64,000 nucleotides of DNA, taken from Gyrodactylus bullatarudis (taxonomy: Eukaryota > Platyhelminthes > Monogenea > Gyrodactylidea > Gyrodactylidae). The notes beneath the pieces are model-generated. The model made no database searches, had not been told where the DNA came from, and was given only the letters and a program-made list of their open reading frames with translations. The DNA is taken from the NCBI GenBank assembly GCA_012064415.1, contig SSNU01000052.1:468586-532585 (forward strand), written 5' to 3'. The position numbers and the translations under genes were made by a program. Positions 1,790-64,000 of the stretch are shown one piece after another (within the stretch, counting starts at the first letter, position 1; each line of letters opens with the position of its first letter).

Positions 1790-2440
1790 TGAGGATAATT
1801 CGATAACTGAGGTTTCAGAGAAAAACGGAATTCTATACGCTGTGTATCATGGCCCTTGTCGCTGACAAACTCATACTTGTGACACACTGTATGATGCTCG
1901 TAGCCTTCATTTTGAAGACATTTGTAGGACTTAAATTCATCAGAAATAATAATGGATCCTGATAAGATTCGTTTATCAATGATTGCAAGGAGTGTGTCCT
2001 TCTTTCGATCAGGAACAGTTGTCATCAACGCCACCAAAAACCCATACATCTTCGTTGACTAGGGTATGCCCACGGTGGTATTTTCTTGAAACAAAGTGAG
2101 ACTCATCAATTTGACAAACGACTTTATCTCCACCAATTTTGACATCTTCAAGGATCACTCTCTCTGTGTAGATATCTCTAACGAAATTTCGCCAGTCTAC
2201 AGCAGTTGGCCTTCCTATATTGAGCTCCTCCATCATATTTTGTAGAGTATTGGTTTCCTTCCTTCCATTCTAATAATTTGTAGGATTTTCCATAACTCGA
2301 GTTTGGATCCTTCGAAGAATGTATCTGAATTAAATTATTTAAGAGAAAAAACATACTTTTCCTTATCGACTCTAAGTACTTGCACTTAGGACATCTGAAA
2401 CAATAACCATCAGACTGGTAACTGATCTTTTAACTTTAAC
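1790..2440 (-). pseudogene. Broken Merlin (IS1016/ISXO2-like) DDE transposase
   Basis: Minus-strand pieces together resemble the ISXO2-like/IS1016 transposase, the enzyme of eukaryotic Merlin DNA transposons. An N-terminal zinc-ribbon piece reads DGYCFRCPKCK near 2372-2410. It continues across a putative 32-nt GT-AG intron (2325-2356) into FFEGSKLELWKILQIIR. A second piece (2009-2236) has NIGRPTAVDW and the first catalytic aspartate in CQIDES. A third (1790-2049) has the second aspartate in IISDEFKSY and a candidate glutamate in HDTQRIE. The pieces are in different frames, with shifts near 2260 and 2030, so the copy cannot encode an intact enzyme. The family assignment rests on motifs seen by eye. 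Terminal inverted repeats were not located. Confidence 0.8.
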
Positions 2441-49000: not shown

Positions 49001-49460
49001 TATGTAATGGTATGTTTCCAGTTTCATCTTTAACAGGTGCGATGACAACATGAACATTGATCATGTTTTCTGGAAAGTGAAAATTATAATTAAAAGGCAT
49101 AATAATGAAACTTGAAAAATTTACTTTCTTTGTTGTATAACGAAATATTTATTTCTGTCTCCAAATTTTGATAAAGGGTATTGGAAAGATTTTTAGATGA
49201 GCTTTCATTGGTTTTTGGTCCGTGTAGAAAGGAGAGTGAAGCTGACTTTAAAAGAATTTGGCCTTTGGTGAAGTTAAAAAGATTACAAAATCCTTCATTT
49301 ACATAAATGATGGGTTTATTCGGTAAAGCTGCATTGGCAATTAAAAATTTTGCATCTTGAAAACAGTAAACAATTAAAGATTACTTTGTAAATTGAATTT
49401 TCTGATTAGAGTATCAATATATGTGTTCTCTGGCGCTATGTGACCACGTCTTATGGGCAT
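19014..49460 (-). CDS. erg: ERG-type voltage-gated K+ channel (Kv11/KCNH)
   Basis: This is a plasma-membrane delayed-rectifier channel subunit that assembles as a tetramer. The 15 exons are 49460-49385, 49355-49125, 49069-48770, 48140-47944, 43979-43834, 36835-36460, 33876-33652, 32862-32711, 26688-26444, 26387-26100, 23161-22916, 21752-21556, 20322-20102, 19523-19239 and 19113-19014. They sum to 3285 nt (1094 aa; human ERG1 is 1159). Landmarks in order are the N-cap [13 protein letters not shown], a PAS domain (26-135), S1 ([16 protein letters not shown]), S2-S3 ([16 protein letters not shown]), S4 ([15 protein letters not shown]), the pore with filter SIGFGN (625-630), S6 [13 protein letters not shown] and a cyclic-nucleotide-binding homology domain (745-890). 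A C-terminal coiled coil follows at about 1040-1085. One S4 arginine is glycine. Intron 1 is only 29 nt and intron 5 about 7 kb. Confidence 0.96.
20323..21555. other. ERG intron 12
   Basis: This 1.2-kb intron joins the last CNBHD exon to a histidine- and asparagine-rich C-terminal exon. No further gene or clear repeat was recognised. Confidence 0.6.
21753..22915. other. ERG intron 11
   Basis: This 1.16-kb phase-1 intron lies inside the cyclic-nucleotide-binding homology domain. It is AT-rich, and no gene was seen. Confidence 0.6.
24081..24160 (+). repeat. Penelope-like 3' tail fragment
   Basis: The blocks tttctctcca, then ttttggagaat, then ttggtg match in order the sequence downstream of the Penelope endonuclease relic at 57461-57540. 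Similarity is patchy but collinear over about 80 nt. Confidence 0.45.
24218..24583. repeat. Spaced inverted repeat (MITE-like)
   Basis: The left arm 24218-24266 (tatatgtca, then gagtct, then aatcagtgagtgtt) is reverse-complementary to the right arm 24520-24583 with several mismatches. The spacer is about 250 nt and non-coding. Confidence 0.65.
25438..25623. mobile_element. Short MITE with 63-nt terminal inverted repeats
   Basis: Arms 25438-25500 and 25559-25623 are near-perfect reverse complements, sharing taattactatatccatatg and the outer tttttagac and aacctact blocks. A 58-nt loop separates them, so a single strand would form a long hairpin. No coding content. The hairpin form suggests a MITE or small-RNA precursor. 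It lies in ERG intron 10. Confidence 0.85.
28087..28780. repeat. Foldback element, family A copy 1
   Basis: Left arm 28087-28345 (starting near aattgatatgaagttggg) and right arm 28500-28780 are diverged reverse complements about 260-280 nt long. Shared blocks include gaagaaaaaaat, gatatgaagtt and acagaaatc. The same arms occur at 37908-38612 with higher identity, so this is an older copy of the same family. Confidence 0.75.
31314..31440 (+). repeat. Dispersed coding-like repeat, copy 2
   Basis: This is nearly identical to 16362-16490. The frame here stays open as [18 protein letters not shown] and continues to [16 protein letters not shown]. The protein family was not recognised. It probably derives from a mobile-element ORF. 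Confidence 0.7.
32330..32700. repeat. Decayed foldback element, family A
   Basis: Fragments of both arms are present: aatatggccactttt, aaaatgggaggt, tttcttaaactggt and ttgagatttttataa, in the same order as in copies 1 and 2. It abuts the ERG exon that ends at 32711. Confidence 0.5.
32863..33651. other. ERG intron 7
   Basis: This 789-nt phase-0 intron lies between S3 and S4. Nothing coding was recognised. Confidence 0.6.
33877..36459. other. ERG intron 6
   Basis: This 2.6-kb phase-0 intron follows S1. A plus-strand 84-codon frame at 33858-34112 starts inside the neighbouring exon and has no recognised similarity. No repeat structure was clear. Confidence 0.55.
37908..38612. repeat. Foldback element, family A copy 2 (best preserved)
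   Basis: Left arm 37908-38175 and right arm 38355-38612 are close reverse complements of about 265 nt. Shared blocks include taatatgaagatgggaattt, gatcactctctcacactgaa (right arm) and atgggcgctacttcaa (right arm). The spacer is about 180 nt. No ORF lies across the arms. It is related to 28087-28780 and 32330-32700. Confidence 0.85.
41012..41626. mobile_element. Non-autonomous TIR element (mariner-like ends)
   Basis: cagggcatccaaaaatatgc at 41012 is matched by its reverse complement, with one or two mismatches, ending at 41626. That bounds a 615-bp element. Ends beginning CAGGG and containing a TCCAAAA block recall Tc1/mariner-type MITEs. The flanks do not show a clean TA duplication, so the superfamily is uncertain. 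No transposase lies inside. Confidence 0.65.
44660..45360. repeat. Inner inverted repeat of the composite element
   Basis: Arms of about 130-150 nt (44660-44808 and 45232-45360) are reverse complements, apart from a 37-nt insertion in the left arm. The loop contains a tandem-like pair of segments, cataaaatagaatg near 44911 and cataaaattgaatg near 45036. Confidence 0.75.
45590..46200 (+). pseudogene. Penelope-like element C-terminal fragment with GIY-YIG endonuclease
   Basis: The plus frame upstream reads [17 protein letters not shown] (45595 onward), the connector after the reverse transcriptase in Penelope-like elements. A stop and a frameshift follow. The frame at 45709-46200 then runs [18 protein letters not shown] to the endonuclease core, [19 protein letters not shown] with EDRIDEHL. 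In the family this nickase primes retrotransposition. C-x-C, YIG and the R-x-x-x-H region are intact, but the reverse transcriptase is missing and the connector is broken. This is the best-preserved of three copies in the window. Confidence 0.85.
48141..48769. other. ERG intron 3
   Basis: This 629-nt phase-1 intron follows the PAS-domain exons. Nothing recognisable was seen. Confidence 0.6.
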
Positions 49461-49676
49461 CCTATTTCATGCTATTTTCATCAATTTGGTTTGTTTTGCC
49501 ACGTAAAAAAACAAAGTAGAATTATTTTTATATTTACAAAATTAATTTAAATGAGCTTGATTTTTGATAATTGTTGATACTATCAACTTGATAGTTTTTT
49601 TTCTGAGATTTTCGGACTGAATTTCAATGAATAATCCAGATTTTAAATTAACTGTATTTATAGAAAATTTATTGAT

Positions 49677-51631
49677 TCAATATTCCCAATCTTCTGCATC
49701 CATCGGATCAGGCTTTATTCTAGATTCCTTTTGAGTGAAGTAGCAACTCAGTACGACTAGGACTAAGATGAGCATCGCAAGACAAGAGAAGAATGTGCTT
49801 TTGCCACTAAACCAAATATAGATCTTGACCTAGTTAACGACAAAGCTTACAATCTCAGAATGTTGCTTCATGGGTTTTAATTTAATCTTAAATTCTCTTG
49901 TACAGAATTTTTCTAAAGATCTCCCACTTCCACTCAAGTAGTTTACATAGCAACATTTTGCTATAGAATTTCCAAAATTTAACTTCATATATTCTATGTA
50001 CTTGGAATCCAGCTCATCAACAGTTAGTGGACCACTAGTTACCGTTTCAAGATCAATCTAAAATTATTACTCGCCATCAATCTTACTCCAAATTCATCCA
50101 TTATTAGTGTCGTATGATCTTTGGAAGGAATTTCCTTCTTCACATGAGTTGTCCAGAGTATGTCATGTCTATCTCTTCCCGCTTCATCCTTCCAATGAAA
50201 TTCCCAATAATTTTCCCAATCTAAACTAAATGGACTATTTACATGTTGCCATAATTGTTTCGACTTGCACTGTAATTCAGTTTCTTTTCCGGCCACGTAT
50301 GTCTCTTCATCGTCAGTAGGAATTACTATGAAAATGCAAGCAGATGAATACTGTTTCGGATCAAATTCATATCCATATCTGAAAATGCCTGCAGTCCACT
50401 TGTTTACATTCCTAAGAATTAGATGGGTTGAATTCATTGTATAATTTCCTTCCATATTTTCATGATCCAAGTTTGTAGGAATGCCTTTTAAATTTTTGGT
50501 TGCTCTCTTGGACCAGAAACCCCTGGAATAAGGAAATCTTTTCGGATTATCAAAGATCTCTTTTCTTATTTTCATATTTGGGTCACAAAATAAATGTAAG
50601 CCCATAACGATTTGGGCTCGAGTTGGATAAATAGTCTCGATATGTTGTTCTCTATCAACGAGATACCGTTCAAAAGTGAGAAGATTTTTTTCGTATTTAC
50701 ATTCAGATATTTTACAGTTTTCTATCCGAGCATTACCACTTTCCAAATCAAAAATGTTTTCAGCAGACAGTTTGTGCCATGCCTCTCCATCTTCATATGC
50801 TAGACTAAATAAAATGTCATCATAAAATAAACTTGCTTAACATATCTTTTGTTATTTTGAATTCTCAGTTTGGTAATATTAATTCTTGGATCATGATTTT
50901 CTTTACTGCAGTATTTTCCACCAAATTCCGGTGGTGGACACATACACGATCGATAGGCCAATCCATGAGCGTACCTTCCGCAAGTTTGATTGCAAAATCT
51001 GACTTCTCTAGACCATGGGCACCAGTTTCCATCAACAATACTAAGAGTACTTTTCAAACAAGGGATTGAGTTTGATTCTATGTCTGCTATTTGTTCTGCA
51101 TGCTCTGGTGGATTTAAAGAATATCTATATCTCTTCATTGTATTTGATTTCCGATCGCATTCTTCAAACTCTGTCCAATGAGTCCATCCACTTTTCTTTT
51201 GAAAATTTTCAAGAAAGATGGGACAACTAAGATATTCGTATTGAACTTCATTTAAATTACACTCAGTATAGAATAAAGAATCACTATCTGCAGTACCAAT
51301 ACATTGTCTTTTGCGGTTAATTGAGTCCTCTCTATTATTACATGTAGACCAAGAAGTCCACTGTGACCACCAAGACTTGCATAAGCGTTGCTTAAGGATA
51401 TAACTACAAAGGGCTATTTGCTAAATTGATTAAGTGGTTTCAAACTTTTTTGACGCAATTTGAGGAGGATTTTTCAGCAATATCAAGATTTTCCTGATAA
51501 AAACACTTGAAACGGTAGGCATAAGGTTTGGAGCAATTGTTCAAAGTATCTCCAGGACATTGCCAGCTAGTCCATTGCAAAAAGTTTGCATTCAATGATA
51601 AAAAATATGTAAAAGCTAAAATCAGTAACAT
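49677..51631 (-). CDS. Single-pass membrane protein with thrombospondin type-1 repeats
   Basis: Exons 51631-51446, 51420-50837, 50804-50087, 50057-49851 and 49829-49677 join in phase to 1848 nt (615 aa). A signal peptide begins MLLILAFTYFLSL. Thrombospondin type-1 style repeats follow, with tryptophan motifs LQWTSWQC, WWSQWTSWSTC, WTHWTEFEEC and NWCPWSREVRFCNQTC, the last ending in a GGKYC motif. The middle is cysteine-poor with Ig-like character (THLILRNVNKWTAGIF). The last exon supplies a membrane helix (FFSCLAMLILVLVVLSCYF) and a short tail, KPDPMDAEDWEY. The product should be a surface receptor or adhesion protein; the ligand is unknown. All four introns are tiny: 25, 32 (GC-AG), 29 and 21 nt. 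It lies head-to-head with RPSA, 135 bp apart. I cannot name an orthologue. Confidence 0.85.
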
Positions 51632-51766
51632 ATTTTAAATTTGATCTCTTGTTTTGCGACAATAAAAACAAATTTAAATTTTGCATGGAATTCGTTTGAA
51701 TGTATGTTTACAAAAAACACTATTCAAATTTATCGTGTGTGATCACAATAAAAATATCATCACATC
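51632..51766. promoter_or_regulatory. Bidirectional promoter interval, RPSA and thrombospondin-repeat gene
   Basis: Only 135 bp separate the two divergent start codons, so both promoters and 5' UTRs must lie here or overlap the genes. No convincing TATA box was identified. This is an inference from spacing. Confidence 0.5.
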
Positions 51767-52588
51767 ATGTCTGGCGTATCTAACGAACTTGAACTTAAAG
51801 AGGAAGATCTCAACTTGATGTTAGCTGCATCTGTACAGACTGGCAACAAGAATGTTAACTTTCTAATGAAACAATATGTTTTTGGAGTCCACCCCGAGGG
51901 TAACCAAATTTTCAAGCTCAAGATGGTATGGGAAAAGATTCTTCTCGCAGCTAGAGCTATCGTTGCTGTCCCTAGCACTACTGATGTCGTTGCAGTAGGA
52001 ACTAGATCTTCTTGCCAAAGAGCTTGTTTGAAATTTGCTCAATATTGCAAAGCTACCGCTATGGCTCAAAGATTCACTCCTGGTGCTTTCACTAATCAAA
52101 TTCAATCATGCTACAAAGAGCCACGTCTTCTTATTGTTAGTGATCCTACTGCTGATCATCAACCTCTCAAAGAAGCTGCAGCTGTTAATATTCCCGTTAT
52201 TGCTTTCGTCAATTCAGACACCAGACTCAACTATGTTGATATTGCAATCCCATGCAATAACAAATCACCAGAAGCTGTCGGTCTCATGTGGTGGCTTTTG
52301 GCCAGAGAGGTTCTGAGAATTAGAGGAGAATTAAGCCGAAGCAAAGGATGGGATGTTATGGTAGATATGTTCATCAGTCGTGCCGTTGTCGAAGATGAAG
52401 TAGATGACGAAGAAAATATCGCCATGAATGGAGATCGTCTTGAAACTGAAAGTGTTGAATGGCAAAATGATGGCCCAGCTGGAGGTATGCCAGCAATCGG
52501 TACCATGGATGCTATGGCAAACTACGGTCAGGCTAATACCGTCGCTGAGAATTGGGATCATCTTGAAACCCATGAAAATGGATGGTAA
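51767..52588 (+). CDS. RPSA: 40S ribosomal protein SA (uS2, laminin-receptor homologue)
   Basis: This 273-residue uS2-family protein of the cytosolic small ribosomal subunit is needed for late 40S assembly. It begins MSGVSNELELKEEDLNLMLA and contains the conserved NVNFLMKQYVFG, TRSSCQRACLKFAQY-like region, FTPGAFTNQIQ, PRLLIVSDPTADHQPL and GLMWWLLAREVLRIRGEL motifs. The eukaryote-specific acidic C-terminal tail is present but shorter than in the human protein (295 aa) and ends ENWDHLETHENGW. The gene has no intron, unlike most neighbours, and its codons are GC-richer, as expected for a highly expressed gene. The ATG at 51767 is preceded by acatc. AATAAA at 52597 follows the stop. Confidence 0.98.
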   Translation: MSGVSNELELKEEDLNLMLAASVQTGNKNVNFLMKQYVFGVHPEGNQIFKLKMVWEKILLAARAIVAVPSTTDVVAVGTRSSCQRACLKFAQYCKATAMAQRFTPGAFTNQIQSCYKEPRLLIVSDPTADHQPLKEAAAVNIPVIAFVNSDTRLNYVDIAIPCNNKSPEAVGLMWWLLAREVLRIRGELSRSKGWDVMVDMFISRAVVEDEVDDEENIAMNGDRLETESVEWQNDGPAGGMPAIGTMDAMANYGQANTVAENWDHLETHENGW

Positions 52589-52596
52589 TTTTATAC

Positions 52597-52602
52597 AATA
52601 AA
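52597..52602 (+). terminator. AATAAA polyadenylation signal of RPSA
   Basis: A canonical hexamer occurs 9 nt after the RPSA stop codon. Such proximity implies a very short 3' UTR. Confidence 0.65.
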
Positions 52603-52895
52603 GATGGTTTCAATTTCTTTAAAAATGAACTGGATTTCTTTTCGATTTATTTATTCTAACAAGCTTAATTTTCTTAATCTTCTAAACTTTGCAAACTGTT
52701 AAAGAGATCATCATAAGATAAAAGTCATTTCAAAAATAAACATTTATCAAAATTTTAAAATCTGCACTGGTCAAATCACTACTCCAAATGTAATCTAGTA
52801 TTTCCTCGACTCTCTTCGTGAACATTCATCTCTTTTGTTTTAAATTCATTGAGCTCTCTTCTGATCTGAATCTAAACCAAAATTGATTAATTAAA

Positions 52896-55800
52896 CTAGC
52901 ACGTTACTTTGTCTTCTTCCCTGATTCTAAGCCAAGGTCTATCGCCAATTCTGTAATAGTGATCAGCTGGTCCAACTTCGACATACTTTGAGAATCGTGT
53001 GGAAACAGTCTTGCTTCTTAAATCAAGCTTGGATGCTTTCTTGATTAGATTATCATTAGAAATAGAATTTACCATTTTGACTAAACTTTTGCGATACTCC
53101 AAATCCTGTTCCTCAGTAAAGGCATCTAAATTTTTTTTTACAAATTTCTACTTGAAAGTAACTCTTAAGTTGATTAAAAAATAATATTTCTTGATTAATC
53201 TTCTACATTAAACTTTAAAATTGACCATAAATAAAATTCACTTGATACTAACCTTTGGAAATGATATTATTCTGAGATAACTCCATTGGCGTGGGTCTAT
53301 TCAGGATCCATACGGATAAATGACGTATTGTTGGACCAAATCCCGATTTGCATAATTGAGTTGCAACTTCACTTTCGTCAGTAACAGCAAGACGATTTGT
53401 TGGACTAGGTGGGTCTTTTTTAAATAAACAGTTATCTCCTATATAACTCTCAAGATTTGTAACAAGGCATGATTTTGGAAATATCATTTCAGAATCCTAA
53501 ATTAATTAATACAAAGTTATTAGAATAGAAAAAGTTCGTTTAAATATAGTTTAAATTTAGTTTACTAAAAATCTGAAAAGCTAGTGTACCAGATCTGTTG
53601 TATTTATTTCATTGGATCTTATTCACGGTGAATAAACTTTTCTAATCAAAATTAACCTAGAGCCTCATATACAGAAAGAGGGATAGGGATAAAAACATGT
53701 CATCATTATGTTTCTATGGTGTAGAATGTTTTGAGTAATAGAGGTAGATGAAATTTTAAAATCACTCGGGTCAAATGGACATTGATATAATATTGAATAG
53801 AGATGTAAAATCTATAAATATCAAGCAGTAAAATTTTTTCCTGATTGAATATAATTACAAAAACATAATTTCATCATTTAAATTGCCACTATAAATTTTA
53901 GTGTAATACCACTGTATCTCAATAAAAATAAAAATCTGAATTTTTCCTTTATTCTTGATAATTTATTGAGGATTTCTTCTACTACCATCAAAAGTTGGAA
54001 CTGATTTAATGAAGTTGAAGATTCTCCTCATCGTCTTCAAGAGTCTTATCTAGAGAAAAATAAAATCAAGATGGCAAGAAGAAAAAAGAAGAGCAATTCA
54101 TAAAAATCACTTTTTTTCTCCACAGACTTGTGAATCAAAAGAAAATTGTAGTCTTTTAGACCCAAAATTGTTCTGTCATCCACGTCGGTGACTAGGCATG
54201 TATGGAACTTCCGCAGACATCGATCTTCACTGTCGCTTCTTGAGGAGTGACCACGATTTCCCTTCCAAACCCGACGAGTCTTCTCTCAGAGGGTCTCAGT
54301 TCTAAATTAATAGCTTTGGCAAACTCGAGGGGTAACAGAGTGCACGACGCACAAGTGTCAACGAGCATATATAACTTTTGCCCATTAACCAAGGCGGGCA
54401 CAGTGATAAAGTATGAGCTATCTTGGGACTGAGTAAAACAGGACAGGCCAGAATCTAAAATTTTATTTGTTGGTTTCTTTGGAACTTTTGGACAAGCTCT
54501 AACAATGTGACCAATTTCCTTGCAACAGTTACACTGCTTGTCAATATAATAACATCTTTCAGGCGGATGCTTGCTGAGACATCTAGAGCATGTCACATCA
54601 ACTACAAGGACATTTACTTCAGGCTTGGCCCTTACTGATTCATAATCTTTAATAACTTTTATCATCCCCTTTAGGTCGTACTTCTTCATCTTGTCAAGAA
54701 TTCTAGCGTCGAGGTTTTCATCATTTAATCCAGTGTGAAGAAAATGACACGTGACATTGTCCCACATTTCCTCAGGCCAATCACTTCTCTTGACCTTGCC
54801 TCTGATGCGATCGGCGAAATCCTCAATTCTCTCACCATCTCTTCTCCTCATTCTGAAAAGCTCTTTATGATACACAAACACTGATTTGTTATCAGTATAT
54901 CTCTCCAACAGCGCGGACTCTATCTGATCGAAATCCGCTTCAATAATCGAACAAGGGGCCAAAAGGTCCTTGACTTTATCGAAAGCCTCTGGTTTCAAGC
55001 TTGTTAAGAAGAAGGCTGCCTTCATCTTCTGATCCGTTACGCCTCCGATTAAAGTATCAAGTTTAAACTGCTCCAGCATGCTAAATAGTTTATCTCTTTC
55101 AACAGGAAGGTCCAAGGAGCGCTTATTGCTAGACCATGACGCCATGTTTTGTATCGGGGCTACTAGCTCAGGCTTGGCTACAGGAGTTTCAATACAGTCA
55201 AAGAATTCAACACTAGACATAATTCAAACAGGCATGTATTTCCAGAATCAAAAATCAAAAAAACTGTTCAATAATTATCGGTCCATAATAACAAAATAAT
55301 AAATAGTGTTTTAAATTAATCTTTTGACATATTCAAATCAATTGATCTCATTTCAACTAGGTTTTTATACGCTGTATAAAATATAATATAATAATAAAAT
55401 AATATACAATGCACTGCGAAACTCATGGGTATCAGAAAATAAAACGTATCAAGAGTCGAAATTCATTCTAGAATAGCAATTTTTCGTAAGGATTTCAAAA
55501 ATCAAATCATTATTTAAGGCGGGAAATCAAAATAAATGCAAAAAAGAAAAAAAATTCGATGATTTTAAGACTTTAAAGGTCAGATAAAAATATTTCAACT
55601 AAAAGTAACGATTTATATTTTTATTCTTCACAAATTCTCAGACATTAAACTTCAAAAAAGTGATCGAGATATCATTTTTTCTAAAATTCTAAAATTCATG
55701 AATAAATTGAAAATTTATTTGGAAACGAATGAAAAAATTTGAATCCGCTGTAGAATTTGGAACTAGTCAAGTTTTTAAAATTCTCAAAAAGATAATTTCT

Positions 55801-58465
55801 TTCTTACATGATTTTCATCCTCTTCTTCTCTAATGGCAGGGTTAAGCTTGTCTTTGGAACGTTTTTGTGACCTCTCTGATATCTTATCAACTTCAGTTGG
55901 CATAGAGCTGGTTTTGGTTATGCTGAAATGAAATTTTGAAATCGTTCCTGTTTGAGCATTTCTCTGATCACCATTGTTTAACAGGAGTTCTGACCGATTT
56001 AAGCTTAATTGGCTTAATTAAAAATAATGGAATAAATTTCTTTTGCTTAAAGAATGCATTGCATAAATTAGCAATTGGCTTGTGGTTAAACCTGTACAGG
56101 TGGAAACGATTCCTTTAAAAATGAATAAAATGTACACTGAGAAAAGTAGAAAAATCCAAGCATTTATAATGACTTAGAGTGAGTAGAAGAAGAATAAGAG
56201 TCTCTTAATGAGATACAAACATTTTTTATCATTAAAATATTTTTGCGTGACGATAGAATGACCAGCGAACGAAATGAGCATTGATTTCGGAGTATCCTCA
56301 TCAAATATTTTTTCTTTTCATGCATCTTATATTCTTTACATGAAAAAAAGTGATTGAAGGTTTATAAATATTTGCAGTTTCATCAGTTTGATTTATAATA
56401 AATCTCTGTCGAAATATAAAATCGATACAAGCAACTCCTATTTTAATTGCGATTGTTGAAAAATTTAACCCTTAAGTCCCAGAGGTCTTTTTCATGACTC
56501 GTTGATTACGAATCTACAGTCATTTTAATGCAGCTATCTTTAGTTCAGGAGTTATCAATCAAACGTTTTAAACAAGAATAAATTTTCTGGAAAAAATCAA
56601 CTTTATTTGAATTATTAGTATGGTATTAGTTTGACAAATGATATCTTTGCGTATTCCAGAAGATTATTAGATTTCCTGTGGAATGAGAGGCAAACAAAGT
56701 CTCGAATGAATAATTCTAATAATAAACGGGTTATTTTTAATATATTTACAGTGATCTGTCTGATGAATTAGAATGAGGAACAATATTTTTGAAAATCTAC
56801 AAAATTTTCAAAGTTTGACTGATATTTAAATATTTTTCCCCTATCCAGATACTGTACCTGAAATGAAAGAAATTCAAAGTATCTAATTCAAGAGAAGATA
56901 TTGATATCACAAAAGATGAAGAAAAAATACATGTATTCAGAATCATCAATAGTGATCCATTAAAATCTAGGAAATTTCTTTTTTCTTGATTGACTATAAT
57001 AAGAAGACCACAATTTTCATGAAACTTAATTTCAAAGGAGATGGTTTTAGTAATGATTTAAAGAGAAAGTTGACAAGTATCATCAATTAACACTATAACA
57101 ACATACAATTGAAAATTGTATTTAAAACTCAGAGATTGTTCCATTTGATTCAGAAAGATTTACTGAGACCTGAAGAGAAGACTCTATTGATTTATAAATT
57201 TCAATGTGACTGCGGATCTTCTTATATAGGACGCACAATCAGAAAGTCGTCAACTAGAGGGAACGATCACCTTAAGAAAGATACAGCGATAACTAGGCAT
57301 CTTAGACAGGAAGGGCATGAGGCTTGAATTTCAAATTTTTCAATTTTATACAGAAACTCGAGTGATGACAGTACAGAGGTTTGGGTGAAGGAGAAATTCT
57401 TCATAAATCTATATAAAACAGACTTATGTGTTCAAAAGAATTATTCTTATAACCTTCAACTACCTTGGCCTAAGCAAGCTTTTTCACTTTTCTCTCCACT
57501 GTTGCTATTTATTGGAGAATTTTGGTGTTTTTTCAGCTTACATTCATTCTAATTTTCTTCAACTTTTACTATTTCTTTCATAATTTGTAAATTATTATTT
57601 TCATTCATCTTTTAACTTTTATCATTATCAAAGAGACACTACTGATGAACTTTTGAGAAATGTTCATTTGGTGTTAATATATCCTTTTTCTACTTTTCCA
57701 ATAATAAGAAAAGAAAAATTGAAAATTCACTTGTACTTCTAATAACCATTACTTGTATGTAAACTATCAATTTTACTAGCAATAAAACTTTCTTTAATAG
57801 ATTGAAAAATTATTTAATTACAATGCAGATAAAAAAATATCGAGGCAATTCAACAGTATATTCGCAAATCAATATATGGTTTATGATCCTCAACACTGTA
57901 TGATAAATCCACTCAAAATCTTCAGCTAGAGAGTAATTTAAACTTGTGTAAATACACATTAAGGTTCTCTGGGTTCTGTAGAACCTTTCGCAAGTAGTGA
58001 ACTTCAATAGTAATGAAAAAATATACAAGTTACACGATTAACGAACCTTCCTTGACGACTCCCTTTAAGAGCTGAACGGATCGGCGTTGAATTTTGACTT
58101 GGCGTACAAACGAATAAATTCCTAACATTAACATGTTGAAGAGATTCACACCGATTTATATCGTACTTTTCCATACAGTTCAGTCCATCTTCATTATTGC
58201 CTATATACTTTTCCAAATTGACCGAGGCTGACTTTTGAGTTCGGGATAAGCTCTGGGGATTTGTCTCAACAATTTCATAATCCCTGTATCGGACAAAACT
58301 CGAGTTTGTACTGATAGCATCGTTACCATTGACTTTTTTACGATCTCGAAAGGATTTTGCAGTTTCAATCAATGATTGCTCGGTTATTCTATTGAATGCT
58401 AATCTAGTTATTATTTTAAAATTTATTTAATCAGACCATTCGGCCTTAAACTTACAATTGCCCAT
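52896..58465 (-). CDS. Unrecognised 316-residue protein, predicted N-myristoylated
   Basis: I do not recognise this protein. A five-exon model, 58465-58456, 58398-58047, 55922-55808, 53496-53253 and 53125-52896, joins in phase to 951 nt. The 10-nt first exon gives MGNSFNRI, a possible N-myristoylation signal (MGxxxN/S). The middle is Ser/Lys-rich and probably disordered, with CTPSQNSTPIRSALKG and an acidic EEEDENH. The C-terminal half looks better ordered: FGPTIRHLSVWILNRPTPME and then HYYRIGDRPWLRIREED. A TP- and SP-rich sequence such as KKDPPSPTNR suggests phosphorylation. Exons 4 and 5 are the best-supported part; the 10-nt first exon and the exon 2 donor (GTTCGT) are the weakest. Two mobile-element fragments lie in its introns. 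Confidence 0.58.
53497..55807. other. Intron 3 of the orphan gene, hosting a retroelement fragment
   Basis: This 2.3-kb intron contains the gag-protease fragment at 54192-55220 on the same strand. A short charged frame after an acceptor-like TCTAG near 54051 (DKTLEDDEENLQLH and a stop) might be an alternative terminal exon, but its phase does not match. Confidence 0.5.
54100..55220 (-). pseudogene. Ty3/gypsy-like gag-protease fragment
   Basis: A 342-residue minus frame (54192-55220) has a Gag capsid-like region (about 30-200) with the motif ERYTDNKSVFVYHKELFRM. A CCHC zinc knuckle, CNCCKEIGHIVRAC, lies near residue 230, and an aspartic-protease start, LVDTCASCTLLP, near 290. The active-site DTG is DTC here, probably inactive. 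The frame stops just after the protease flap, and protease-like sequence resumes one frame over (VDDRTILGL, near 54165). No reverse transcriptase, integrase or LTR was found. The fragment sits in an intron of the orphan gene. Confidence 0.82.
55923..58046. other. Intron 2 of the orphan gene with Penelope relic
   Basis: This 2.1-kb phase-2 intron contains the plus-strand Penelope endonuclease fragment at 57109-57540. The rest is AT-rich without recognised coding content. Confidence 0.5.
57109..57540 (+). pseudogene. Penelope-like GIY-YIG endonuclease relic with 3' tail
   Basis: The plus frame 57109-57327 reads IVFKTQRLFHL and then YKFQCDCGSSYIGRTIRKS, with NDHLKKDTAITRHLRQEGH. This is the GIY-YIG endonuclease end of a Penelope-like element. 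A stop codon follows, after which the frame is still partly readable (VWVKEKFFINLYKT, about 57385). The distal part (57461-57540) matches 24081-24160. The reverse transcriptase is not recognisable. Confidence 0.8.
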
Positions 58466-60921
58466 ATCTTCATAGAACTATCACTTCTAGTAACAAAAAA
58501 TATTCATTTTACTCAAGTTAAGTAACGTAAACTGAAATGAGAATTGAGTAGACTGGAAATTTCTCGTAGAAAACATTATACTCTAGTCTTTTAACCAATC
58601 AGATAACACCAATATTTCTCTGCACAAATTCTTAACGTTAACATACAAGAATATGAAACAAACGCACAAAAATTAGATCCTATTTATAGAATGTATATCT
58701 TTTTCTGTGCACCAAACTTTTTAGATATAAATTGACAGATTGTGTGGACTAGACATGAATCCCATTGGTTAAATGGTAAATTCTATGTTACAGAAGAATA
58801 TTCCAGCTGATCGATAATAAAAGATTCTTTTCTTACCTTGTGCAGAATACTTTTTTCCCCCTAGAGGTTCAAGTGTTCCACTTAAGACGTGATAAAAATA
58901 CGAAATAACTAACTAAAGCTTGTTAATATGAAGATGATCCCAAATAGTCAAGGGATCATGTCAACGATGTTAAAAAAATCCCCTTATTCTCATTTTCATT
59001 CAGATAAATTACTATAAAAAAAGAGGGGCTAAATTTCTAAATAAGATTCATTTGATCCCTTCTGAAAATTTCGTTTTTCTTTCTGACATTTTCATTGACC
59101 AATATTGTGAATTTAAATTTTGATATATCGATAGTTTGAAAGATTCCGCGTCAATTGAGCTATTTACGATACCTCTATCATGAGATTATTCGGAAGAGAT
59201 TCAACCTCAAAGTTAAAGAGTTTTGGTTTTCTGCCAAAATTCGAAATCATAAACTTAAATAGTGGAAAAAATTTTAAAAATAAAGAAGGAGAATTTCAAA
59301 TTCTATTCTGAATCGGATCGTGTGCTTTGCAAACGTGTAATCTCTATGCTAAAGAGAAGAAATTCAAGTCGGAAATACTTTCTTCTTCGAATATCTCGTA
59401 AACGAGTCGCTAAATTTTTTTTATTATTTTGGATTTGAGATCAGAATATATTTATCATATTTGAAATATTTATGTAATAAACTGTTTTCAAGTTTGACTG
59501 ATAATTCAAAGACCTTGGCTTAACATATAATCATAACCTCTCTATAAAACTTAATTTAAATAAGCTATTAAAAACGCCAATTGTCTCAAACTTGCCTCAA
59601 GCTGTCTTGCAATGGAACACTTCTATGAATACATCGAACCAGACAAAAACTCAACTTATAACACTAAAAACCCGTTGAGATACTTTACAACATTCTCCCT
59701 CTCAAAGTTAGATTCAAACATCCCCTCAGCGAATTTAAAATCCACATGCGACTTCTTTCGAAAGCTCATCCCGAAAGACGAAAACCCCTTTAGAAACTAT
59801 TTCTCATGACAATTGAATACAATACAAGTGAATTTTAATAGTTTAGTGTACAATTTATATCAGATTATCAAATACTATAATAGATAAATAATAATAATAA
59901 ATTCATAATTTTATAAACATATCAGACCAGGATTAGAGATTGATAAGACCTGGCGAAATACGTATTTCTTAAAATAAAGTTCTTTTTAAAAACATCCAAT
60001 AATGACTGTACTATAAAAGTTTATATTTACTGTTCTAAAATCTGCGTATCATTTTTGTCTAAAGCCAATTCAGATTATTCTGAAAATTCGATGAGAATCT
60101 TGCTTGCACGAAAACTTGATTTAAGCACACTAACTGAAAGATTTTTATCTCAGGAAATTTCAGCTATCTCATGGAAAATCATCATAAACGTACTACAGTA
60201 TGAGAATGAATAATGTTTTGGAATAATTTTTTTTGTCGAAAAAAAGAATTTCTGTTCAATTATGTTTCAGTTTAAATAATTTTGAGATCTAAATTTCTTG
60301 AATTCAATGGAAATCTATTTTACTTTCCATAACTCAATTCTTTATTGAACTAAGAATAAGTAGTTCTTCTGAAGGAGCACTTCAAAATAAATTTATCAGC
60401 AATAAGCTCACTTGTTTTGCCTTTTATAGTACTAACATTCATTAAATGGAAGAATTTCTTTCAGTTTTCAAATACAATGTCTTGCAAGAGAACCCAACGC
60501 TTGTATTTATTCTTCAAGGCTGTTTCAAATTGCAAACACTTTTTCTTTAAAGTTTTTTTCGGTATCTTTCAAAAATTTTAAATAGCTTTCTTCTAATATT
60601 TCTCAGAGAATGTTTCAAAAAGATCTCAGCTTTGGTATTTCTATGGATAATATGCAAATTTTGTGCAAACATTAAAAAATTTATTCCTGAGAGCCGTAAA
60701 ACCAAATCAATTTTATTAAATAATAATTTGACAATCATTTTTTACTTTCTGAGTAGTTCAATCTATTTTTCATAAAAATTAAAAAAAATCTCGAGTCTTA
60801 AATAGATAAAAGACGTCCATTTTGAATAATCAAAGAGTTAGCAATATGAAAAAATTTAATTCTCTTTTTTATCGGCAAGTTACAGAATTTAAATTTTTTT
60901 GAAAATAAATTTATAATATAT
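58466..60921. other. Intergenic stretch between orphan gene and LAMP-like gene
   Basis: This 2.5-kb interval should hold the orphan gene's promoter and the LAMP-like 3' UTR. A plus-strand 65-codon frame at 59612-59809 (MEHFYEYIEPDKNSTYNTKN and on) is richer in GC than its surroundings but has no recognised family or supporting features. A short segment near 60185 (cgtactacagtatgagaatg) resembles one near 40046. No other structure was seen. Confidence 0.5.
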
Positions 60922-61862
60922 TCAAAAAGAGAATGGTTGATACTTTTTGTTCGCTTTGAAGACGCCAGGTTTAGGCCCGTTTTTATTTTCAATCAAACTT
61001 TCAAGAGGAAAGGTCTTGGCTGATTTATCTTCCCCTCCAGGTGAGGCATCATCCTTTAATTGGCACATGCAGGCGAAAATACAAGTGAACAGGCCCATAA
61101 TAAGAATTATTATTAATATTGCCATTGTCACTATATTTGACTCGGAATCGTTTGGACAATTGACAGCTGTTGATTAAAAGAAGATTTTAATTAAAAAGTA
61201 TTAATCTCTACTCATAAGTACTTATAAGTAGTTTTTATTTTTTACTCACCGTATCCTGAAAAATTTTTAGAATCTAGCCTAGGAAAAACTTGATATTCAA
61301 AATCTTTTAAATGAAACAGTATATGAAAAGTATTATTGCCAAGTGAATATAATGAACCGTTCCAACCTGATCGGCAGACATATTTCCATCCAACTCTAAT
61401 AGTGATAATATCTCCAAAAGCATTTGTTGGTTCTGGATCAATGATATTATTGAAGTATAGCCTGTCATATACTATACCCTTGTAGTTGACAGTGAAATTT
61501 CTTAGTCCATAAAACCCGTTGAGTGAAGTGTATGAAATGCCCAAGCCACTCCATGTAGGTTCTTCTCCAAGAACAAGAGGATCAATGGTGAAAACCCATC
61601 TAAAATTCAATGTTATGTCATTAAAAGTAAGTTTGGCAGTTGCAGGAGCGGTAGAATTACAAAATAAATGTCTACTAGTCAGGTATTGTTCACTGATTTC
61701 TTCATTTTCTATAACGTCTGAGTTTGAAATAACTTGAATAGAGCCTCCGATAGTAAATATTAGACAGGTTTTTTCAGAATCATTATAAGAGAAAAAAATT
61801 TTGGCATTAGTGGTTAAAAAGTTACAAATATACAAAAATACAAGAATCCAGATCTTTTTCAT
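60922..61862 (-). CDS. LAMP-like lysosomal membrane glycoprotein
   Basis: Exons 61862-61250 and 61166-60922 give 285 aa. The likely start is MKKIWILVFLYICNFLTTNA, a signal peptide; an in-frame ATG 27 nt upstream (61889) is an alternative. The lumenal part (about 21-217) has several NxS/T sites and four cysteines spaced as in a LAMP domain: KTCLIF, LFCNSTA, KYVCRSG and AVNCPNDS. The fold signature KLTFNDITLNFRWVF and HLKDFEYQVFP also resembles LAMP, whose family members line the lysosomal membrane. A membrane helix (MAILIIILIMGLFTCIFACM, about 219-238) precedes a 47-residue tail ending KKYQPFSF. The tail lacks the usual terminal GYxxI but has a YQPF motif that could act as a YxxF-type sorting signal. 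The family call is by architecture, since sequence similarity is weak. Confidence 0.75.
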
Positions 61863-61944
61863 ATCAGTTAAAATGAACGATTTAAACACTAATTTAATTC
61901 ATTTGTAATTATAATTATCTTTATTGTTTTATTATCTGGAAATT
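61863..61944. promoter_or_regulatory. Bidirectional promoter interval, LAMP-like and ATG16L1
   Basis: Only 82 bp separate the preferred start codons of two divergent genes (55 bp if the LAMP-like gene starts at 61889). A shared core promoter is inferred from spacing. No specific transcription-factor motif, such as the CLEAR element GTCACGTGAC, was seen. Confidence 0.5.
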
Positions 61945-63575
61945 ATGTTTTATAATGAATTTGTGAATCTTCTTATAGAAAGAGATAACAACGAATCTAC
62001 TAAATTTGACCAGCTTATTTGTGACTGTAATTCTCCGTTTATATTTTTTAGTTAATCGAGTACTTGAAGAATGGCGACATATAAAATTACAAAACATCCA
62101 GTATCAGAATGAGTTGAATAATTCCAACTCTCTAATTGATAACTTCAAAAATGAATTAGATAGAGCGTATGATGCACTTTTTAAATATTTTTTAGGGATA
62201 GCAATAAGTGTCACGAACTTGATAAAAAGGCTAGTCGACTTCAAGATGAATTAAACGATGTTCATAAATCAAATGGCAAAGTATTTTTAACTTTATAGTA
62301 ATATTGTAGCTTGTTCAAGATCTACATGATGCCAACAAAATGCTGCAAGAAAAAGAACGCTCTTTTCAATCTTTAAACTCAAAGTATACTGAAGTTGACA
62401 GGGAAATGAAGACCCTAAGTGGCATGGTTCAAAGCTTTAAGAATAAAATTCTTGACCTCGAAGAAATTAAAAGACATCTACTTGATGAGCAAAATGCTTC
62501 TAATTTACAGATTAAATCCCTTGAAACAAAACTTAATTCATCTAAAGACGAAAATATCAAGTTAATCATGAAAATTCAATCTCTACAGAAGCAAATAGAA
62601 GAATATGAGAATACAAAATTTGACTTGAACTTTCGTATGGAAAAGGAGAAGGCTAAACTTATTCTCGCTGATGCTGCCAATAGTGTTTTAGATGTAGATG
62701 ATTCTAGCATAGATTTTGGAGATGTTTGCAATGTTATACCAACAAAACCTGTAGTTACTCTAACAAATGACATTGATGGAGACTTATCCTGTGTCAAATT
62801 CTCTCCATCTGGCTTTTCATTTGCTTCAGGTGGTCAAGATAGGAAAGTTCGCATTTGGTCTTTTTACAATGGAAAATCTGAGTTCAAATCAATGTTTGTT
62901 GGTTGTAACGCTGGAATTCTATCTATTGATTTTGATCCAACTGAAAATTTAATTTTGGGTTCGTCCAATGATTTTGGTTGTCGAATTTGGAACATATCTG
63001 ATTGTCGAGTCAAAACCAACCTGACCGGACATTCTGATAAAGTAGTATCTGCCAAGTTTATGGGAACTGACAGTAAAGTTGTCTCTGCTTCGAGCGATCG
63101 AACCCTAAAGATATGGGATTTGAACAAGCGCCAATGTCTTAAAACAATTGTTGCTATGAGTGCTTGTCATGATGTTGTCTTCAATACTTCATTCGGCCTT
63201 ACCATTAGTGGACACTGTGATAAAAAGATTCGACTATGGGATCAGAGAGGAGAATTAAATACAGACCAAATTGTATTACCAGGAAAAGTCACTGGTCTCG
63301 ATATTTCCAAAGGTATTCTTGGCATTATTTTTATTGAATTTAGATTCCTATTATCTACTTGCCTGTACAAGAGATGATGTCCTACGTGTAATAGATCTTA
63401 GAATGAATGATGTTATTGAAGTATTTCAAGGCGAAGGATTCCAAACTGGTTTTGACTATCAACGTCCTTGCTTTTCTGCGAATTCCAGATATGTTTGTGT
63501 CGGTGGTAGTGATGGCAATGTTTACATTTGGGACCGACAAAATCGTCAACTGGAATGTAAACTCTCTGGTCACAG
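61945..63575 (+). CDS. ATG16L1: ATG16L1, autophagy conjugation-complex subunit (3' end beyond window)
   Basis: ATG16L1 binds ATG5-ATG12 and directs LC3/ATG8 lipidation at the phagophore. Exons 61945-62020, 62052-62166, 62196-62280, 62310-63312 and 63344-63575 agree in phase and give 503 residues before a GTTAGT donor. The last WD blades must lie past the window. The N terminus (NLLIERD, then KFDQLIFNRVLEEW) matches the ATG5-binding helix. A coiled coil spans about 45-220. WD40 blades begin at about 240: GDLSCVKFSPSG, CNAGILSIDFDP, NDFGCRIWNI, LTGHSDKVVSAKF, SSDRTLKIWDL, ISGHCDKKIRLWDQ and CTRDDVLRVIDLRMND. These are close in order and wording to human ATG16L1. The four introns are 31, 29, 29 and 31 nt. 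Confidence 0.95.
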
Positions 63576-64000
63576 GTTAGTTTCTTTATAAAAATTAATT
63601 TTATTGCTCTTTTACAATTTTTTTTCTAATTTCTTTCTTCAACTTATTCCCAAAAATCACTCTCTTTATCATCATTAACCCTCGCCCTATACAATGTAAA
63701 AATTACAAATAATACCTCTGGGGTCCATATGGACCACATTCATTTTAATGTGAAAAATTGAGGTTTTCAATAGAAAAAAAATTTATATATAAAAAATTAC
63801 ACGAGTCACAAATAATTTCATAATGTTCATCACAAACATTTTTCGAGCATTTTGAACATAAAGATCGAATTTTTTGTCTCTTGACCTTGGACAAATGACG
63901 CATCTTCCTTTTGACACGCTGATTTTCCTACTTGGAGTTTCAGAGGAATGATTTGAGACCTTTATCCTCTTAGCTAGTGGTGGCTGAGACGGTGTACTTT
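63576..64000. other. ATG16L1 intron 5, invaded by piggyBac (partial)
   Basis: The intron opens with the donor GTTAGT at 63576 and runs off the window. From 63679 it is transposon sequence. Confidence 0.7.
63675..64000 (-). mobile_element. piggyBac element, 3' end with TTAA target and transposase C terminus
   Basis: TTAA at 63675-63678 is followed by ccctcgccctatac, as expected of a piggyBac terminal repeat, and by a subterminal palindrome, ggtccatatggacc (63722-63735). The minus frame from 64000 to a stop at 63745 is the cysteine-rich C-terminal domain of the transposase. It reads GRCVICPRSRDKK and then, after a one-base frame change near 63868, CSKCSKNVCDEHYEIICDSC. The frame change sits at a run of A/T, so decay or a sequencing error are both possible. 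The rest lies outside the window. Confidence 0.85.

What the first reader, a model, noticed from the sequence alone, without database searches (positions are those of the whole stretch)
49356..63343. A distinct class of ultra-short introns (21-32 nt, commonly 29 nt)
Ten introns fall between 21 and 32 nt: ERG intron 1 (49356-49384, 29), four in the thrombospondin-repeat gene (25, 32, 29, 21), four in ATG16L1 (31, 29, 29, 31), plus 32 nt in a Merlin transposase relic at 2325-2356. The next shortest is 53 nt. All follow GT-AG or GC-AG, and removing them restores phase in conserved proteins, so they are not annotation artefacts in ATG16L1 or ERG. Animal introns are rarely under 40 nt, because branch point and both splice sites must fit. 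A two-class distribution with a mode near 29 nt suggests a spliceosome tolerant of minimal introns.
Basis: partly seen in the sequence, partly recalled or inferred. Interest (0 to 1): 0.85.

Follow-up and report, generated by a model that had tools for sequence, protein, structure and literature searches.

The report
Ultra-short introns in a gyrodactylid flatworm
This small parasitic flatworm appears to remove gene interruptions of only about 21 to 33 letters, shorter than the human splicing machine can handle, alongside a separate class about twice as long, so it is a good natural test of how small a working intron can be.

Summary
The four ATG16L1 introns (31, 29, 29, 31 nt) and ERG intron 1 (29 nt) restore conserved proteins. 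The four in the "thrombospondin" gene rest on frame continuity alone; the Merlin one cannot be decided. The 77.3-Mb genome is a gyrodactylid monogenean (COX1 89% identical to a Gyrodactylus). Away from the window I read the Cpn60/CCT loci whose matches showed gaps or stops (6 of 9) and all 14 proteasome loci found: 33 introns, of which 19 are 23-33 nt (mode 29), none 34-53, 12 are 54-69 and 2 exceed 100. So the two classes exist beyond the window. In all 8 of these genes holding both classes, every ultra-short intron read precedes every longer one (1 in 12,960 if order were random). Ends are GT-AG; U1, U2, U2AF and RED are present; the two U6 copies found are altered. The kind is known: cestode peaks near 36 and 73 nt, bimodal short introns reported for Gyrodactylus salaris, dicyemid median 27 nt. 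New here are exact sequences, the empty zone, the order within genes, and lengths below the human limit. RNA evidence is missing.

The parts
62021..62051 (+). ATG16L1 intron 1, 31 nt, GT-AG, codon 26 phase 1
62167..62195 (+). ATG16L1 intron 2, 29 nt, GT-AG, codon 64 phase 2
   Evidence: junction beside an alignment gap
62281..62309 (+). ATG16L1 intron 3, 29 nt, GT-AG, phase 0
63313..63343 (+). ATG16L1 intron 4, 31 nt, GT-AG, codon 427 phase 1
63578..64000 (+). Probable ATG16L1 intron 5, donor GTTAGT, acceptor not identified before the end of the window, which is the end of contig C409
61945..63577 (+). ATG16L1 exons 1-5, 504 codons read
49356..49384 (-). ERG (KCNH2-like) intron 1, 29 nt, codon 26 phase 1
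49070..49124 (-). ERG intron 2, 55 nt, codon 103 phase 1: first of the longer class in the same gene
51421..51445 (-).
   Evidence: frame continuity only
50805..50836 (-). 32-nt GC-AG intron, same gene
   Evidence: frame continuity only
50058..50086 (-). 29-nt GT-AG intron, same gene; a 17-nt join is also possible
   Evidence: frame continuity only
49830..49850 (-). 21-nt GT-AG intron, same gene; if kept it ends the protein just before a hydrophobic, probably transmembrane, stretch; four other joins are possible
   Evidence: hydrophobic stretch seen by eye
2325..2356 (-). 32-nt GT-AG segment in a degraded transposase-like stretch; intron or indel undecided

Best explanation
These are ordinary U2-type spliceosomal introns that have shrunk, in a gyrodactylid monogenean, to near the smallest length the splicing machine can use (21-33 nt, mode 29). 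They form the lower of two classes; the upper class starts at 53-54 nt, close to the conventional minimum of animal introns. Shown: lengths, joins at GT-AG or GC-AG that restore conserved proteins, no intron of 34-53 nt in two families, and a short-before-long order of the classes within genes. Inferred: one major spliceosome removes both classes by intron definition; in the short class donor, branch point and acceptor are read as one compact unit, with the branch point necessarily under 30 nt or so from the donor. Also inferred: at least some of the short class lies at old intron positions that lost sequence (ERG introns 1 and 2 sit at the codon and phase I recall for human KCNH2), and factors that relieve short donor-to-branch distances in humans (SMU1-RED) take part.
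For: Frame and homology. Ten spliced proteins were compared with solved structures; the 13 microintron junctions inside those alignments (CCT6 two, CCT4 two, PSMB6 two, PSMA6, ERG, CCT2, PSMA7, PSMB5, PSMB1, PSMA4 one each) all fall in ungapped stretches. Distribution and order: (33 introns; 8 of 8 mixed genes ordered). Taxon: mitochondrial contig C13, COX1 89% to Gyrodactylus. Machinery: U1 with ACUUACCUG 5' end and U2 with GUGUAGUAUC, U2AF large subunit, RED_N; SMU1 was not searched. Human limit: PMC11291888 and PMC6692369, passages. Same kind in relatives: PMC5036155 and PMC6530080, passages.
Against: No RNA reads; splicing is inferred. My joins allowed only GT or GC donors and AG acceptors, so those ends are partly by construction, though every one of the junctions tried, PSMB3 apart (read), had such a join. 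Seven of the 33 introns had more than one join, and for three of them an alternative would fall at 34-44 nt (CCT2 40, PSMA7 34, PSMB5 38 or 44); the chosen joins are the ones without a gap. An ab initio gene model did not separate GT-AG from decoys (at a strict setting 5 introns against 0-1). Donor-acceptor distance counts in 264 kb show only a weak excess at 26-32 nt (2.86 per nt against 1.58 at 34-52; four control counts at 26-32 nt were 1.71-3.14). No clear branch-point consensus. One kinesin intron is 42 nt and that gene breaks the order (63, 31, 42). Three micro introns lie near 3' ends (PSMA4, PSMB5, PSMB6). The U6 copies found are altered.
Confidence: 0.9

Rival explanations
1. The segments are assembly errors or indels in decaying genes rather than introns.
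For: The Merlin-like stretch, and the orphan gene without homologues, could be read this way.
Against: Essential genes elsewhere (CCT, proteasome) carry the same kind of segment, and its removal restores full-length proteins.
Confidence: 0.03
2. The genome is a dicyemid, and the finding only repeats the known dicyemid 26-27-nt introns.
For: A dicyemid genome is of similar size (67.5 Mb) and dicyemid introns have a median of 27 bp (PMC6736024, PMC6543705, passages).
Against: COX1 is 89% identical to Gyrodactylus and 83-84% to the next three hits, and reads sensibly with the flatworm mitochondrial code. In the two families 14 of 33 introns are 54 nt or more.
Confidence: 0.01
3. The longer class is two micro introns in one: a nested or tandem intron removed in two steps, which would explain its doubled length (about 59 against 29; 73 against 36 in cestodes).
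For: The ratio of the two peaks is near two here and in cestodes.
Against: Only 1 of the 14 longer introns tested holds a nested GT-AG unit of fitting size, fewer than in shuffled sequence (mean 4.3); the halves are no more alike than in shuffled sequence.
Confidence: 0.03
4. Short and long classes are removed by two structurally different assembly routes of the same spliceosome, so that lengths between them are hard to use. This is an addition to the best explanation rather than its opposite; the figure is its own.
For: 0 of 33 introns at 34-53 nt in two families. Donors differ: GTNAGT in 8 of 30 micro and 15 of 21 longer introns, p 0.002 uncorrected.
Against: A 42-nt intron exists. In the two-family set alone no donor difference reaches 0.05. 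Deletion bias plus selection could also make two peaks.
Confidence: 0.25

Closest known systems
Bimodal short introns of cestodes and of Gyrodactylus salaris (PMC5036155, passages; the G. salaris genome paper cited there, Hahn et al. 2014 as I recall, is not held)
   Same: Two peaks of short introns in a neodermatan flatworm; peak ratio near two; AT-rich introns
   Different: Tapeworm peaks are about 36 and 73 nt, here about 29 and 59. There the shorter class is said to lie towards the 3' end, here it precedes the longer class in 8 of 8 genes. The G. salaris peak values were not visible to me.
Trematode microintrons, Opisthorchis felineus (PMC6530080, passages)
   Same: Peaks at 37 and 90 nt, clustering of microintrons, enrichment near the 5' end
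   Different: Shorter here. There microintron splice sites are closer to consensus; here, in the pooled set, micro donors fit GTNAGT less often than the longer ones.
Dicyemid ultra-short introns (PMC6543705, PMC2222250, passages)
   Same: Median 27 nt, mean 26.2 nt; an animal parasite with a small genome
   Different: Two thirds of predicted dicyemid introns are under 30 nt; here a second class of 54 nt and more makes up 14 of 33, often in the same gene. Different phylum.
Ciliate introns near 25 nt, Paramecium (PMC5014332, search listing; PMC2222250, passage)
   Same: Length range
   Different: Some ciliates have only such introns; distant eukaryote group.

Membership tests
U2-type (major) spliceosomal introns | GT-AG or GC-AG ends | tested here: met
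   One GC-AG among the 51, the rest GT-AG; the joins allowed no other ends, so this is partly by construction
U2-type (major) spliceosomal introns | U1, U2 and U2AF in the genome | tested here: met
U2-type (major) spliceosomal introns | Intact U6 with ACAGAGA | tested here: inconclusive
   Only two U6-like copies found, both altered; only 48 of 11,714 candidates were scored
U2-type (major) spliceosomal introns | Branch-point consensus | tested here: inconclusive
   Candidates differ from intron to intron; 19 micro and 18 longer introns looked at
U2-type (major) spliceosomal introns | Removed from mRNA | not testable with these tools
   No RNA data
Flatworm bimodal microintrons | Host is a neodermatan flatworm | tested here: met
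   COX1, 89% to Gyrodactylus
Flatworm bimodal microintrons | Two short peaks with a trough between | tested here: met
   19, 0 and 12 introns at 23-33, 34-53 and 54-69 nt, 2 longer; n 33
Flatworm bimodal microintrons | Peak positions near 36-37 and 73-90 nt | tested here: not met
   Here about 29 and 59. This sets the species apart rather than the kind, since the published class already varies in average length
Dicyemid ultra-short introns | Host is a dicyemid | tested here: not met
U12-type (minor) introns | Donor RTATCCTT | tested here: not met
   By eye, none of the donors printed has it; AT-AC introns would have been missed by my joins, and U12 snRNAs were not searched

The most novel reading that the evidence does not exclude
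Gyrodactylid spliceosomes have two discrete working geometries: a compact one for introns up to about 33 nt and the usual one from about 53 nt, with the lengths between largely unusable, and genes use the compact one first, in 5' to 3' order. A bolder form: the compact route goes with a changed U6 snRNA, since the only near-complete U6-like copy found by two searches has ACAGAAA in place of ACAGAGA. I think that form more likely reflects pseudogenes and unassembled snRNA arrays (about 0.05).
Probability: 0.2. Interest if true: 0.8.

Novelty: new member of a known kind. Interest (0 to 1): 0.5.

Why it matters
Human spliceosomes need about 45-50 nt between donor and branch point; here whole introns are 21-33 nt, many in essential genes, next to introns that respect the usual minimum. 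One genome thus offers a built-in comparison for asking what sets the lower limit of intron length. It is also a practical warning: a gene predictor with a minimum intron above 33 nt would miss 19 of the 33 introns read in these two families and break 15 of their 16 intron-bearing genes.

Tried and rejected
A self-trained coding model with free introns was tried with five decoy dinucleotide pairs at one setting and four at two others. At a strict setting it gave 5 introns against 0-1 for decoys; at looser settings it gave as many or more with decoys (106 against 97-120; 348 against 402-529). I dropped it (one search had no decoys) and used conserved genes. Counting donor-acceptor distances in raw sequence gave a weak, unconvincing excess (one search included eight loci that a 29-nt pattern had brought in). 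A fixed 29-nt pattern genome-wide had more hits for its reversed control than for itself and says nothing. The nested-intron idea was tested and dropped. A homology search with the orphan gene found nothing at E 0.01. Gene names for the CCT, proteasome and kinesin loci were given with the help of recalled human sequences; nine CCT and proteasome proteins and the ERG N-terminus were then confirmed by search, the rest only by eye.
Full report
What the sequence shows. In the window, ATG16L1 on the plus strand is broken by four segments of 31, 29, 29 and 31 nt with GT-AG ends. Without them the gene reads as one 504-codon frame. A protein search gave a tapeworm ATG16-like protein as the best hit (38% identity, 98% coverage), and the alignment runs through three of the four junctions without a gap, the second lying beside a gap in the coiled coil. 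Pfam finds ATG16 and WD40 domains in the product. A fifth intron probably opens at 63578 with GTTAGT; the window ends, with the contig, 423 nt later. ERG intron 1 is 29 nt; the joined N-terminus aligns to solved KCNH2 chains over residues 1-102 without a gap. The next ERG intron is 55 nt. Exon 1 has 76 nt and exons 1+2 have 307 nt, the same as the human KCNH2 boundaries as I recall them, which would make both introns old.

What is weaker. Removing them gives a 615-aa frame with a hydrophobic stretch near its end, but Pfam and one protein search found nothing like it, so these rest on frame continuity and splice sites alone. The Merlin-like segment cannot be judged.

Which animal. The genome has 77.3 Mb in 471 contigs. 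Contig C13 (14,926 bp) carries mitochondrial cox1. Read with the flatworm mitochondrial code, its best match is a cluster named for Gyrodactylus albolacustris, 89% identity, followed by Macrogyrodactylus, Cichlidarus and Paragyrodactylus at 83-84%, which I recall as gyrodactylids. The species is not identified.

Test in genes chosen without regard to the finding. The Cpn60/CCT family gave 14 matches on 9 contigs. Three contigs matched as single open frames and were not fetched; the six with gaps or stops were, so the count is of intron-bearing members. The 20S proteasome family gave 14 matches on 14 contigs; all were fetched, and 10 of 14 showed at least one intron. The first 180 nt of each proteasome locus were not displayed, so more introns may lie upstream. 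Joining frames at GT or GC donors and AG acceptors gave 33 introns: 23, 26, 26, 26, 27, 28, six of 29, 30, 30, 31, 31, 32, 32, 33; then 54, 55, 56, 57, 58, 59, 60, 62, 63, 68, 68, 69, 109, 118. Two of the micro introns, in CCT2 and PSMB3, come right after the start codon, where alignment can test them least. Seven of the 33 had more than one possible join (two in CCT2; one each in CCT6, PSMA7, PSMA4, PSMB5, PSMB1). I first chose by the recalled human length, which was not blind; some rejected joins would have fallen at 34-44 nt (CCT2 40, PSMA7 34, PSMB5 38 or 44). I then compared all six of those proteins, and CCT4, PSMB6 and PSMA6, with solved structures: the chosen joins leave no gap at the junction. 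With ERG that makes 13 microintron junctions in ungapped stretches, 12 of the 19 in the two families. The other seven (CCT8, CCT3, CCT1, CCT2 first, PSMB7, PSMA3, PSMB3) were judged by eye.

Kinesins. The kinesin search gave 26 matches on 13 contigs. I fetched four loci picked because their gaps looked short, so they are not part of that count. They hold introns of 85, 63, 31, 42, 53, 61, 27, 121 and 64 nt; the 85, 61 and 64 are ambiguous. The 42-nt intron is the only one of the 51 between 34 and 52 nt.

Order within genes. Eight genes of the two families hold both classes, and in all eight every micro intron read comes before every longer one: CCT1, CCT2, CCT3, CCT4, CCT6, CCT8, PSMA3, PSMB1. 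The chance of that under random order is 1 in 12,960. ERG (29, 55) agrees, as do ATG16L1 if its fifth intron is long, and one kinesin (27, 121, 64). Another kinesin does not (63, 31, 42). Micro introns can lie near the 3' end in genes without a longer one (PSMA4, PSMB5, PSMB6). So the rule is about order, not a ban.

Signals. Among 30 micro and 21 longer introns, A at +3 is in 25 and 11, T at +6 in 16 and 19, and GTNAGT in 8 and 15 (uncorrected p 0.028, 0.006, 0.002). In the two families alone none reaches 0.05. Both classes end in a T-rich stretch. I found no fixed branch-point motif. Micro lengths are mostly 3n+2 (17 of 30). Of the four micro introns of length 3n in the two families, three have a stop in frame and one (PSMA6, 30 nt) does not.

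Machinery. Two U1 copies were found, one with the standard ACUUACCUG 5' end; two of three U2 copies found keep the GUAGUA region; U2AF large subunit and RED each match as a single open frame. SMU1 was not searched. The two U6 copies found are altered. Human SMU1 and RED are needed when donor and branch point are close (PMC6692369, passages), and human splicing fails below a distance of about 45-47 nt (PMC11291888, passages). Here the whole intron is shorter than that distance. Hence the mechanism I favour: one major spliceosome, intron definition, a compact arrangement for the short class, with RED-type relief of crowding. All of that beyond the lengths and ends is inference.

What is known. 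Tapeworm short introns peak near 36 and 73 nt, and the same paper reports the bimodal pattern for Gyrodactylus salaris (PMC5036155, passages); I did not see the G. salaris peak values, and the primary paper is not in the library. Trematode microintrons peak at 37 and 90 nt and favour the 5' end (PMC6530080, passages). Three gyrodactylid genomes are tabulated with mean intron lengths only (PMC12677651, passages). Dicyemid introns have a median of 27 nt (PMC6543705, passages). In the listings of four searches I saw no peak values for a gyrodactylid; I did not read every listed paper. The finding is therefore a new member of a known kind, with exact positions, a trough without introns in two families, and an order rule as its additions.

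Noticed in passing
L013:1501-1603 (C154), L014:1501-1601 (C426): Only two U6-like snRNA copies were found (48 of 11,714 candidates scored). The better one has ACAGAAA instead of ACAGAGA and a poor 5' stem; the other, aligned from the right by eye, also lacks the G. A pattern search allowing one mismatch found only the first. Probably pseudogenes, with the working genes unassembled.
   Followed up: partly
L009 (C408), L010 (C241), L011 (C125): Three U2 copies, each imperfect in a different part: L009 lacks a good 3' stem, L010 a good 5' end, L011 the 5' end and branch-site region. This fits snRNA arrays missing from the assembly.
   Followed up: partly
L038 (CCT2), L055 (PSMB3): Micro introns of 29 and 27 nt directly after the start codon, so that the first coding exon is the ATG alone.
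   Followed up: partly
L056 (PSMB6), intron of 29 nt: The intron ends just before the codon that I recall as the catalytic threonine of this proteasome subunit.
   Followed up: no
49830-49850: If the 21-nt intron is kept, the protein stops just before its hydrophobic stretch, which could switch a membrane protein to a secreted one.
   Followed up: no
54192-55223: Open frame on the minus strand with a retroelement-type aspartyl protease match.
   Followed up: no
micro class against longer class, two families: The two peaks stand near 1 to 2 here (29, 59) and in tapeworms (36, 73). No explanation; the nested-intron idea failed.
   Followed up: partly
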